Below are positions 49,274 through 59,298 of a stretch of DNA of 64,000 nucleotides, piece by piece; within the stretch, counting starts at the first letter, position 1; each line of letters begins with the position of its first letter. The notes under the pieces were generated by a model that was not told the DNA's origin, searched no databases, and was given only the letters and a program-made list of their open reading frames with translations. Both the position numbers and the translations under genes were made by a program. Source of the DNA: Ottowia sp. oral taxon 894 (GTDB taxonomy: Bacteria; Pseudomonadota; Gammaproteobacteria; Burkholderiales; Burkholderiaceae_C); NCBI RefSeq assembly GCF_001262075.1, contig NZ_CP012073.1:2095001-2159000 (forward strand), written 5' to 3'.

Positions 49274-51136
49274 TCATGGCGCGCCGTGCTGGCTGGCCGC
49301 CGCTTCGGCGCTGCGCGCCCACCACGTCCAGATGGCCCAGGTTTCGGCCTGAAAGTAGGCGGGCGTGACGGCGGGCGGGTGCAGGCGCCAGGCGTTGTAG
49401 GCCATGTTGTGCACGGGCGAATACCACTGGGGCAGCAGGTAGTGGCTGTGGGTGATGACGCGCTCCAGCGCCCGGCAGGCGGCCAGGTAGTCCGCGTGCC
49501 CGCGCGCGCCGACCATGCGGGCAATCAGCTCATCAATGGCGGCGCTGGCGGCGCCGGGGTAGTTGCCCGAGCCTTCGGCGCGGGCGGCGGCGCTGCCGAA
49601 AAGCTCGGCCATTTCCTGCCCCGGCAAGGCGGCGCCGGCATAGGCCAGCGACGTGATGTCAAAGTCAAACCGGTCCAGCCGCTGCTGGTAGAGGGCGAAA
49701 TCGACGGCGCGCAGGCTCAGGCGCACGCCGATTTTTTCCAGGTTGCGCTGCCACGCGCCCACCACGCGCGCGCCTGCTTCGCTGCTGTCCAGGTATTCCA
49801 GCGCCAGGGGCTGGCCTTGCGCGTTGCGCAGCCAGCCGCTGGCGTCGGGCCGCCAGCCGGCCTCGGCCAGCAGCGCCTGGGCGCGGCGCAGGTTGTGGCG
49901 CAGGCCGTGGGGGCCGTCTTCGGGGCGGTCGGTGCGCGGCGGCTCGAAGGCGGCTCCGAAGGCGGCGGCGGGAATTTGGGCGCGCAGCGGCTCCATCAGG
50001 GCCAGCTGGGCGGCGTCGGGCAGGCCCTCGGCGGCGCATTCGGTGTTGCCGAACAGGCCCTTGACGCGGTTGTAGCTGCCGTAGAAAAAGCGCCGGTTCA
50101 TCCACTCATAGTCCAGCGCCAGGCCCAGCGCCTGCCGCACGCGCGCATCTTGCAGGGCCGGGCGGCGGCTGTTGAGCACATAGCTTTGAAAGCCGGTGGG
50201 CAGCCGGTGGCGAAAGCTGCCTTTGACCAGCTCGCCCGTGGCAAAGCGCTTGCCGCTCATGCGCCGCGCCCAGTCGCCAGCGGAGAACACGCGCATCAGG
50301 TCGAACTCGCCCGCCTTGAAGGCTTCCAGCCGGGCGGTGTTGTCGCGGTAAATCTTGACGAGGATGCGGTCGAAATGGCCCGTGCCGCGCCGCACGTTCA
50401 GATCGCTCCCCCAGTAAGCGGGGTCGCGCACGTAGGTGATGTCTTTGCCAAAGCGAACGGGGCCGATGCGGTAGGGGCCGCTGCCAATGGGCGGCTCCAT
50501 CACCACTTCATTGAAGGGCTTGCCCTGGCCCCACTGGCGGCTGAACACGGGCAGCGCGCCCACGGTCAGGGGCAGCTCGCGCGAGGGCTTTTTGAAGCGA
50601 AAGCGCACGGTGCGCTCATCCAGCACATCAGCGCCCGCCACATCGGCCATCAAAGTGGCGTAAGCAGGGCGGGCGTGGGGGCCGGTGAGGGTGTCAAAAC
50701 TGTGCTTGACATCTGCGGCCAGCACCGGGTCGCCGTTGTGAAAGCGCGCCTGCGGCCGCAGGCGGAAAGTGGCCGAAAGGCGGTCGGGCGCCACCTCCAC
50801 ATCTTCGGCCAGCAGGCCGTAGGCGCTGCCCGCTTCGTCCAGCGAGCCGATGAGCAGGGTGTCAAACAGCAAGTCATCCAGATACGCAGGCGCCGTGCCT
50901 TTGAGGGTGAAGGGGTTGTATTTATCGAAAGTGGACACGCGAAAGCTGCTGACCAGCCGCAGCTCGCCGCCCTTGGGCGCGTCGGCATTCACGTAGTCGA
51001 AATGGGCAAAGCCGGGCGGGTATTTCAGCTCGCCCCACAGGGCGTAGCCGTGGGCGGCGAAGGCGGCGGGGGCGGCCAGCGCGGCAGTCAGAGTCAGCCC
51101 CGCGCAGGCCCGTGCAAAGCGGCGGATTCGATACAT
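49274..51136 (-). CDS. YejA-like peptide ABC transporter solute-binding protein (intact copy)
   Basis: A 620-residue periplasmic solute-binding protein of family SBP_bac_5. A signal peptide (ARACAGLTLTAALAAPAAFA) leads to YPPGFAHFDYVNADAPKGGE and LGLALDYEWMNRRFFYGSYN, typical of the YejA/microcin C and oligopeptide-binding group. The ATG at 51136 is used; a GTG at 51160 would add 8 residues. It lies only 42 bp from the divergent fabI. Its first 1,564 bp (521 codons) are part of the 2,424-bp repeat unit; the C-terminal 99 codons are unique to this copy. No permease or ATPase genes are adjacent. Confidence 0.9.
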   Translation of the reverse strand: MYRIRRFARACAGLTLTAALAAPAAFAAHGYALWGELKYPPGFAHFDYVNADAPKGGELRLVSSFRVSTFDKYNPFTLKGTAPAYLDDLLFDTLLIGSLDEAGSAYGLLAEDVEVAPDRLSATFRLRPQARFHNGDPVLAADVKHSFDTLTGPHARPAYATLMADVAGADVLDERTVRFRFKKPSRELPLTVGALPVFSRQWGQGKPFNEVVMEPPIGSGPYRIGPVRFGKDITYVRDPAYWGSDLNVRRGTGHFDRILVKIYRDNTARLEAFKAGEFDLMRVFSAGDWARRMSGKRFATGELVKGSFRHRLPTGFQSYVLNSRRPALQDARVRQALGLALDYEWMNRRFFYGSYNRVKGLFGNTECAAEGLPDAAQLALMEPLRAQIPAAAFGAAFEPPRTDRPEDGPHGLRHNLRRAQALLAEAGWRPDASGWLRNAQGQPLALEYLDSSEAGARVVGAWQRNLEKIGVRLSLRAVDFALYQQRLDRFDFDITSLAYAGAALPGQEMAELFGSAAARAEGSGNYPGAASAAIDELIARMVGARGHADYLAACRALERVITHSHYLLPQWYSPVHNMAYNAWRLHPPAVTPAYFQAETWAIWTWWARSAEAAASQHGAP

Positions 51137-51178
51137 TCGCGGATTCTGTCTCACACGCACTCACCGGAGTTTTCATTC

Positions 51179-51985
51179 ATGACACAGGGTTTTCTGGCGG
51201 GCAAGAAGCTGCTCGTGACCGGCGTTTTGTCCAACCGTTCCATTGCCTACGGCATTGCCCGCGCCTGTCGCGCGCAAGGGGCCGAGCTGGCTTTCAGCTA
51301 CGTGGGCGAGAAGTTCAAGGGGCGCATCACCGAGTTCGCCGCCGAGTTCGGCAGCAAGCTGGTGTTTGATTGCGACGTGGCCGATGACGCGCAGATTGAG
51401 CGCCTGTTCGCCGATCTGGGCGCGGCCTGGGGCCGGTTTGACGGCTTTGTGCACTCCATCGGCTTTGCGCCGCGCGAGGCGATTGCGGGCAATTTTCTGG
51501 ATGGCCTGTCGCGCGAGGGCTTTCGCATCGCGCACGACATCAGCGCCTACAGCTTTGCCGCCATGGCCAAGGCGGCGCTGCCGTATCTGAACGACCGCTC
51601 GGCGTTGCTGACGCTGAGCTATCTGGGTGCGCTGCGCGCCATTCCCAACTACAACACGATGGGGCTGGCCAAGGCCAGTCTGGAAGCGGCGGTGCGCTAT
51701 CTGGCCGAGGCGCTGGGCCGCACGGCCGATGGCCGCTGCGTGCGCGTGAACGGCATCAGCGCCGGCCCCATCAAGACGCTGGCGGCCAGCGGCATCAAGG
51801 ACTTTGGCAAGCTGCTGGGCCGCGTGGCCGACGCCGCGCCGCTGCGCCGCAACGTGACGATCGATGACGTGGGCAACGTGGCAGCCTTTTTGCTGAGCGA
51901 CCTGGCCGCAGGCGTGACGGCCGAAATCACCTACGTGGACGCAGGCTTCAGCCAGACGGCCGGACTGTCGGCGGACATGGTCTGA
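51179..51985 (+). CDS. fabI: Enoyl-[acyl-carrier-protein] reductase (NADH) FabI, copy 1
   Basis: FabI reduces trans-2-enoyl-ACP in the last step of each fatty-acid elongation cycle and is the target of triclosan. The 268-residue protein has the SDR-type start LVTGVLSNRSIAYGIARA, catalytic residues Tyr148 (LSYLGA), Tyr158 (IPNYNTMG) and Lys165 (GLAKAS), and the C-terminal GIKDFGKLL block. Positions matching E. coli triclosan-contact residues are wild-type: Gly95 (HSIGFAP), Met161 and the Phe in KDF. The start ATG has CCGGAG upstream. It lies divergent from yejA with 42 bp between ATGs, so its promoter must overlap the yejA 5' end and is repeated in every unit. Confidence 0.97.
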   Translation: MTQGFLAGKKLLVTGVLSNRSIAYGIARACRAQGAELAFSYVGEKFKGRITEFAAEFGSKLVFDCDVADDAQIERLFADLGAAWGRFDGFVHSIGFAPREAIAGNFLDGLSREGFRIAHDISAYSFAAMAKAALPYLNDRSALLTLSYLGALRAIPNYNTMGLAKASLEAAVRYLAEALGRTADGRCVRVNGISAGPIKTLAASGIKDFGKLLGRVADAAPLRRNVTIDDVGNVAAFLLSDLAAGVTAEITYVDAGFSQTAGLSADMV

Positions 51986-51996
51986 AGCCCCCTGCT

Positions 51997-58408: not shown

Positions 58409-58450
58409 TCGCGGATTCTGTCTCACACGCACTCACCGGAGTTTTCATTC

Positions 58451-59257
58451 ATGACACAGGGTTTTCTGGCGGGCAAGAAGCTGCTCGTGACCGGCGTTTT
58501 GTCCAACCGTTCCATTGCCTACGGCATTGCCCGCGCCTGTCGCGCGCAAGGGGCCGAGCTGGCTTTCAGCTACGTGGGCGAGAAGTTCAAGGGGCGCATC
58601 ACCGAGTTCGCCGCCGAGTTCGGCAGCAAGCTGGTGTTTGATTGCGACGTGGCCGATGACGCGCAGATTGAGCGCCTGTTCGCCGATCTGGGCGCGGCCT
58701 GGGGCCGGTTTGACGGCTTTGTGCACTCCATCGGCTTTGCGCCGCGCGAGGCGATTGCGGGCAATTTTCTGGATGGCCTGTCGCGCGAGGGCTTTCGCAT
58801 CGCGCACGACATCAGCGCCTACAGCTTTGCCGCCATGGCCAAGGCGGCGCTGCCGTATCTGAACGACCGCTCGGCGTTGCTGACGCTGAGCTATCTGGGT
58901 GCGCTGCGCGCCATTCCCAACTACAACACGATGGGGCTGGCCAAGGCCAGTCTGGAAGCGGCGGTGCGCTATCTGGCCGAGGCGCTGGGCCGCACGGCCG
59001 ATGGCCGCTGCGTGCGCGTGAACGGCATCAGCGCCGGCCCCATCAAGACGCTGGCGGCCAGCGGCATCAAGGACTTTGGCAAGCTGCTGGGCCGCGTGGC
59101 CGACGCCGCGCCGCTGCGCCGCAACGTGACGATCGATGACGTGGGCAACGTGGCAGCCTTTTTGCTGAGCGACCTGGCCGCAGGCGTGACGGCCGAAATC
59201 ACCTACGTGGACGCAGGCTTCAGCCAGACGGCCGGACTGTCGGCGGACATGGTCTGA
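58451..59257 (+). CDS. fabI: Enoyl-ACP reductase FabI, copy 4
   Basis: The last copy, identical in protein to the others. It is the one attached to the original downstream flank (CTGCTTTTCAGAACCTG) and the terminator at 59299. It is therefore the ancestral 3' end of fabI, while copy 1 is attached to the ancestral intact yejA. Confidence 0.96.
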   Translation: MTQGFLAGKKLLVTGVLSNRSIAYGIARACRAQGAELAFSYVGEKFKGRITEFAAEFGSKLVFDCDVADDAQIERLFADLGAAWGRFDGFVHSIGFAPREAIAGNFLDGLSREGFRIAHDISAYSFAAMAKAALPYLNDRSALLTLSYLGALRAIPNYNTMGLAKASLEAAVRYLAEALGRTADGRCVRVNGISAGPIKTLAASGIKDFGKLLGRVADAAPLRRNVTIDDVGNVAAFLLSDLAAGVTAEITYVDAGFSQTAGLSADMV

Positions 59258-59298
59258 AGCCCCCTGCTTTTCAGAACCTGTTCACAGACACGAAAAAA

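What the first reader, a model, noticed from the sequence alone, without database searches (positions are those of the whole stretch)
49573..59268. Fourfold perfect tandem amplification of fabI
Four head-to-tail 2,424-bp units each carry a complete fabI with its upstream region. No differences are visible and the proteins are identical. FabI is the target of triclosan and other enoyl-ACP reductase inhibitors, and extra FabI is a known route to tolerance. The triclosan-contact positions I can check (Gly95, Met161, Phe of KDF) are wild-type, so selection for dosage is a coherent explanation. Such arrays are unstable by homologous recombination, so a fixed array suggests recent or ongoing selection.
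Basis: partly seen in the sequence, partly recalled or inferred. Interest (0 to 1): 0.88.

Follow-up and report, generated by a model that had tools for sequence, protein, structure and literature searches.

The report
Four identical tandem fabI gene copies
An Ottowia bacterium appears to carry its only recognised gene for the last step of fatty-acid elongation four times in a perfect row, a recent natural gene amplification whose cause may be a drug-like inhibitor or, just as plausibly, a decayed on-switch of that gene.

Summary
The genus is Ottowia. Each unit holds complete fabI plus the 5' part of the divergent yejA-like gene. The junction has no microhomology. None of 298 other sampled family genomes shows such an array, but drafts can collapse arrays. 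FabI is the only enoyl-ACP reductase recognised; triclosan-contact residues are wild-type.

The triclosan reading is coherent but untested. I add a rival: a 15-bp element between yejA and fabI, with 0-2 mismatches in 84 of 91 relative rows, has four changed bases here, all in what would be the fabI-facing -10 half; the yejA-facing half is intact. Amplification may compensate a weakened fabI promoter. Units 1-3 lack the hairpin that follows unit 4, so read-through is possible.

No reads are held, so copy number is unproven. Verdict: probably real; a new member of a known kind (gene amplification); cause open.

The parts
49573..59268 (.). tandem array, 4.0 identical units of 2,424 bp
49573..51996 (.). 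unit 1
51997..54420 (.). unit 2
54421..56844 (.). unit 3
56845..59268 (.). unit 4
51179..51985 (+). fabI copy 1, 268 aa
53603..54409 (+). fabI copy 2
56027..56833 (+). fabI copy 3
58451..59257 (+). fabI copy 4
49274..51136 (-). whole yejA-like gene (family-5 solute-binding protein; ATG at 51136, or GTG at 51160)
   Evidence: start choice inferred
51173..53584 (-). truncated yejA of unit 2, frame running on open antisense to fabI copy 1 (803 codons)
53597..56008 (-). truncated yejA of unit 3, likewise (antisense to fabI copy 2)
56021..58432 (-). truncated yejA of unit 4, likewise (antisense to fabI copy 3)
51134..51148 (+). changed form of the family-wide element before fabI, unit 1 (4 of 15 bases differ)
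   Evidence: coordinates by arithmetic
53558..53572 (+). same element, unit 2
   Evidence: units identical
55982..55996 (+). same element, unit 3
   Evidence: units identical
58406..58420 (+). same element, unit 4
   Evidence: units identical
51996..51997 (.). novel junction (repeated at 54420/54421 and 56844/56845), no microhomology
59295..59317 (+). hairpin with T-rich 3' arm after fabI copy 4 only, candidate terminator
   Evidence: not listed by the scan; function inferred

Best explanation
The locus is a real, recent gene duplication-amplification that raises FabI dosage. Step 1 (inferred from the junction): a point inside yejA was joined to a point just after fabI without homology, giving a tandem duplication. 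Step 2 (inferred): recombination between the 2.4-kb repeats expanded it to four. Step 3 (inferred): four promoter regions, plus possible read-through because units 1-3 lack the 3' hairpin, yield more FabI. The most likely reason for keeping it is a need for more FabI from a gene whose conserved promoter half has decayed in this lineage; a FabI inhibitor such as triclosan would favour the same array. The sequence facts are shown; promoter function, expression and selection are inference. Odds by judgement: real array that raises dosage 0.75; promoter compensation as main driver 0.35; inhibitor as main driver 0.25.
For: Exact 4.0 units, all identical. Relatives keep yejA and fabI as a divergent pair (86 loci listed, among them 72 of 80 named ones). 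FabI is single in 24 of the 25 genus relatives with a match, the 25th being two fragments on two contigs. In 299 family genomes including the window's, 293 match; four others have two matches, which are 47-81% identical to the query and not tandem. FabI is the only enoyl reductase recognised: FabV model 0 hits here, 2 of the 80 order genomes searched; FabK model 117.7 bits against a cut-off of 453.1; other FabI-like matches weak, best E 3.4e-6. Control element: 0-2 mismatches in 84 of 91 relative rows (two rows are repeats of the same contigs), at most 3 in all 25 genus relatives with FabI, 4 here, at positions 4, 7, 8 and 9: the TG, the -11A and neighbours of a proposed fabI-facing extended -10; the proposed yejA-facing -10 is untouched. 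In print, tufB-region duplications were tied to low EF-Tu after gene replacement (PMC5574714, passages).
Against: No expression data and no reads. A general enrichment test of the motif upstream of genes was uninformative: 3 of 25 and 10 of 109 hits lie before an ORF, against 13 of 190 for permuted controls, and the exact 9-mer had 1 hit, 0 before an ORF; own-genome stretches 2 of 39. So the element could be a regulator site. A substitute -10 (TACATT, 4 of 6) overlaps the site (read by eye). Other loci (L029, L038, L089) also lack a good copy of the element and were found with one fabI. By one of two methods about 20% of fabI mRNA sustains half-maximal growth in E. coli (PMC2698124, passages), so a weak promoter need not demand four copies. 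Four substitutions look older than an array without differences. Extra yejA promoters may make RNA antisense to fabI copies 1-3.
Confidence: 0.45

Rival explanations
1. Selection by triclosan or another FabI inhibitor: extra copies titrate the drug and raise tolerance; the array is kept by exposure.
For: FabI is the only enoyl reductase recognised and its contact residues are wild-type, so dosage is the open route. ENR overexpression is listed as a triclosan-resistance mechanism (PMC5006077, passages), and extra fabI gives resistance in S. aureus (PMC4923244, abstract).
Against: No exposure, source or MIC known. The paper search for Ottowia with triclosan gave 3 papers, none about this from their listings. 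The changed fabI control element gives a drug-free reason.
Confidence: 0.25
2. Near-neutral or transient duplication caught by chance in the sequenced culture, soon to be lost by recombination.
For: Identical tandem repeats arise and collapse often (general knowledge); zero differences mean recent or homogenised copies; only one genome shows it.
Against: Four copies of a unit that contains one whole essential gene is more than a single chance duplication; neutrality needs several unselected steps.
Confidence: 0.2
3. Assembly artefact: the array is absent, or its copy number is wrong.
For: No reads are held; perfect identity of all units is what a false repeat would show. Other exact repeats exist in the contig, including a probable tandem rRNA pair.
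Against: A novel junction without homology would have to come from a chimaera; the contig separates other repeats of about 2 kb; apart from the rRNA repeat no other kilobase-scale head-to-tail repeat was seen in 395,000 bases of 20 stretches.
Confidence: 0.15

Closest known systems
folCEPBK amplification in Streptococcus agalactiae (Brochet 2008; seen only through the review PMC11721125, passages)
   Same: amplification that includes biosynthetic drug-target genes; overproduction of the target is the proposed cause of resistance
   Different: there sulfonamide and trimethoprim resistance is reported; here the gene is fabI, the host a betaproteobacterium, and no phenotype is known. The reference title says naturally occurring; the review's table marks it Lab
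sh-fabI second copy in Staphylococcus aureus, TnSha1/TnSha2 (PMC4923244, abstract)
   Same: extra fabI as a route to triclosan resistance
   Different: that copy is foreign and moved by an insertion sequence; here the copies are identical, at the native place and free of any IS seen
fabI upstream mutations in triclosan-resistant S. aureus (PMC4415318, abstract and passages)
   Same: FabI level as the selected trait
   Different: there mutations raise expression; here the conserved element looks weakened and copies are multiplied
Compensatory gene amplification after gene replacement (Lind 2010, title seen in reference lists only; tuf case in PMC5574714, passages)
   Same: copy number offsets low output of an essential gene
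   Different: laboratory constructs; here a natural genome and a sequence-based inference
sdrM amplifications in S. aureus (through review PMC11721125, passages)
   Same: junctions with microhomology or no homology
   Different: efflux pump, 7-13 kb units, evolved populations under drug

Membership tests
FabI (SDR-type enoyl-ACP reductase) | sequence match to the family and to solved FabI | tested here: met
   PF13561 270.7 bits; E 2.3e-118 to FabI chains 3ek2 and 4rlh (Burkholderia origin recalled)
FabI (SDR-type enoyl-ACP reductase) | Tyr-X6-Lys catalytic motif | tested here: met
   Y158...K165 in NYNTMGLAK; YX6K rule from PMC5006077, passages
FabI (SDR-type enoyl-ACP reductase) | enoyl-ACP reductase activity | not testable with these tools
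   needs complementation or an enzyme assay
Tandem gene duplication-amplification | head-to-tail repeats of high identity with a novel junction | tested here: met
Tandem gene duplication-amplification | single copy in relatives | tested here: met
   25 of 28 genus relatives have FabI, one gene each; 3 drafts gave no match. 292 of 298 family genomes match, none with identical tandem copies. Most are drafts, in which arrays can collapse; of genus relatives only G010, G013 and G023 are single contigs, each with one copy
Tandem gene duplication-amplification | copy number confirmed by reads | not testable with these tools
   no reads held
Drug-target amplification conferring resistance | raised MIC that depends on copy number | not testable with these tools
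   no phenotype available
Bidirectional promoter with overlapping divergent -10 elements | divergent start sites 7-25 bp apart | tested here: inconclusive
   the family motif would put starts about 15 bp apart if the proposed -10s are right; rule from PMC10268837, passages; no start-site data; not the commonest 18-bp arrangement
IS-mediated amplification | insertion sequence at or between the units | tested here: not met
   unit and junction hold only yejA and fabI sequence; none of the eight proteins scanned in and around the array is a transposase

The most novel reading that the evidence does not exclude
A natural, compensatory amplification of an essential lipid-synthesis gene: the divergent promoter that the family keeps between yejA and fabI lost its fabI-facing half in this lineage, and the cell restored FabI by multiplying the gene and dropping the terminator between copies, so that the array is partly co-transcribed, with no drug involved.
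Probability: 0.3. Interest if true: 0.6.

Novelty: new member of a known kind. Interest (0 to 1): 0.45.

Why it matters
Natural, sequence-perfect arrays of a drug-target gene are seldom caught in a finished genome. If real, this one makes two questions testable in one small locus: whether extra target copies in the environment reflect biocide exposure, and whether amplification repairs the output of an essential gene whose promoter has decayed. It also draws attention to a short element between yejA and fabI that is conserved across the family.

Tried and rejected
Horizontal replacement of fabI: a protein tree of 90 rows put the window's FabI, with its nearest relative G021, inside a group of Comamonas, Delftia and others, while a YejA tree of 40 rows kept the genus together. 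But the AU test did not reject one genus clade for FabI protein (p 0.454; 0.312 without L018) or fabI DNA (0.514; 0.293), and the DNA tree did not put the window with Comamonas. Dropped as unsupported.

Microhomology or hairpin-driven joining: the longest shared strings near the breakpoints are within chance.

Plasmid origin of the unit: no match in 72,556 plasmid records, in megablast mode only.

Promoter evidence: the sigma-70 consensus scan found no site; motif enrichment was uninformative. FabV models: the 14 controls did not ring; PF12241 was repeated on the order, where it rings in 2 of 80. The 16S search listed one copy, but part of the neighbouring region is withheld, so the rRNA count was not used. 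Naming the strain failed (listing only; not accepted). Structure prediction was not used.

Full report
OBSERVATION. The four 2,424-bp units that begin at 49573 are identical, and the repeat runs from 49573 to 59268 exactly, 4.0 units. The window is 2,095,001-2,159,000 of a single contig of 2,925,783 bases, 99.96% complete; the unit occurs in full at these four places only. Four intact fabI genes of 268 codons result.

ANATOMY. Each unit holds, on the minus strand, the 5' part of a gene for a family-5 extracellular solute-binding protein (PF00496; 'yejA-like' is a recalled name) and, divergent from it, complete fabI. The left flank completes yejA only for unit 1; in units 2-4 yejA is truncated and its frame runs on, open, for 803 codons antisense to the preceding fabI. 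The right flank, next to unit 4 only, holds a hairpin with a T-rich 3' arm at 59295-59317 (4 of 200 shuffles of the 67-base stretch fold at least as well; not listed by the consensus scan). It may be the fabI terminator; if so, transcription of copies 1-3 may run on into the next unit. That is inference.

ORIGIN OF THE ARRAY. At the junction the two parental sequences share no base on either side, and longer shared strings nearby are within chance. The first duplication was thus a joining without homology; later growth to four probably used the 2.4-kb repeats. The unit holds no insertion sequence, and has no near match in 72,556 plasmid records.

RELATIVES. Contig G003:C1 has the same length, and its locus the same BLAST scores, as the named record of Ottowia beijingensis; the window's genus is therefore the one that holds Ottowia. 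Of 29 genus genomes including the window's, 26 have FabI: four copies here, one in each of 24 others, and in one two fragments on two contigs; three drafts gave no match. Of 299 family genomes including the window's (a sample at 90% completeness or more, at most 8 candidates scored per genome), 293 match; four others have two matches, on different contigs or about 1.1 Mb apart and 47-81% identical to the query. Most relatives are drafts, in which a perfect array could be collapsed to one copy; the three other single-contig genus genomes (G010, G013, G023) have one copy each. The divergent pairing of yejA and fabI is common: 86 loci listed, among them 72 of the 80 named ones.

THE ENZYME. FabI matches solved FabI chains nearly over its length. 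No FabV is recognised, by a model that rings in 2 of the 80 order genomes searched. The one FabK-model match is far under its cut-off, and 11 of 14 control genomes give such matches, one of them over the cut-off. Other FabI-like matches are weak. FabI is therefore probably the only enoyl-ACP reductase, and essential; this is inference.

A CHANGED CONTROL ELEMENT. Just before fabI, overlapping the yejA start codon, relatives carry CATGCGACAATTCTG: 0-2 mismatches in 84 of 91 rows (two rows repeat other rows' contigs), 3 in three, 4 in one, 6-7 in three; median distance to fabI 31 bases. All 25 genus relatives with FabI have it with at most 3 mismatches. The window has CATTCGCGGATTCTG, four changes at positions 4, 7, 8 and 9; no site with up to 3 mismatches exists in the window. 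In the best-matching sites, positions 4 and 7 are constant in 91 of 91 rows and position 9 in 90 of 91. Read as overlapping divergent -10 elements (my reading), TGC-GACAAT faces fabI and CAGAAT faces yejA; the changes remove the TG and the -11A of the fabI half and spare the yejA half. The roles of -7T and -11A and the 7-25 bp rule for bidirectional promoters come from PMC10268837 (passages). Support is incomplete: enrichment tests were uninformative, a substitute -10 (TACATT) overlaps the site, three relatives lack a good copy, and no start sites are known. All four units share the changed element, so it predates the array or was spread with it.

READING. I judge that the array raises FabI dosage (0.75). 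For the cause I put compensation of the changed promoter (0.35) slightly before a FabI inhibitor (0.25), then near-neutral drift (0.2); these are judgements. Against compensation: by one of two methods about 20% of normal fabI mRNA supports half-maximal growth in E. coli (PMC2698124, passages). Against the inhibitor: nothing is known of exposure. Against both: antisense transcription from the extra yejA promoters could lower the gain.

ARTEFACT. Reads are not held. In 20 stretches (395,000 bases) of the genome I saw no other kilobase-scale identical head-to-tail repeat, with one possible exception: rRNA sequence repeated exactly over at least 1,930 bp at a distance of 5,416 bp, which may be two operons in tandem (part of the region is withheld). 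There are also an exact 1,292-bp pair 3,257 bp apart and a near-exact 2.07-kb repeat in two distant places. The contig thus separates repeats about as long as the unit, but that does not prove the count of four.

IN PRINT. In the open PMC library I found no natural tandem array of fabI (listings). A 2024 review of resistance by gene amplification has no occurrence of fabI or triclosan and lists folCEPBK of S. agalactiae (passages). Most subscription papers are missing from that library, so this is no proof of novelty.

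Noticed in passing
window 51134-51148; loci L008-L098, L138-L151: A 15-bp element CATGCGACAATTCTG that overlaps the yejA start and precedes fabI is conserved in most Comamonadaceae loci seen; it looks like a divergent promoter, with yejA possibly read from a leaderless mRNA.
   Followed up: partly
G000:C1 2905101-2906392 and 2908358-2909649 (L136, L134): An exact 1,292-bp duplication 3,257 bp apart; an outer-membrane-porin-like open frame lies between the copies (label by eye, recalled).
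   Followed up: partly
L123 9803-11875 and L131 1-2073: A near-exact repeat of at least 2.07 kb at two places about 1.1 Mb apart, with a glycine-zipper-like protein and a 414-aa protein (labels by eye).
   Followed up: no
L127 1-1930 and 5417-7346: 23S/5S rRNA sequence repeated exactly at 5,416 bp, so two rRNA operons may stand in tandem.
   Followed up: no
P0001, alignment: FabI of this genome has four residues more than the solved chains between ALG and VRVN; by length of match its relative G021 seems to have them too, while most genus relatives do not.
   Followed up: partly
L134 11278-11369: SAH riboswitch above the Rfam gathering score.
   Followed up: no
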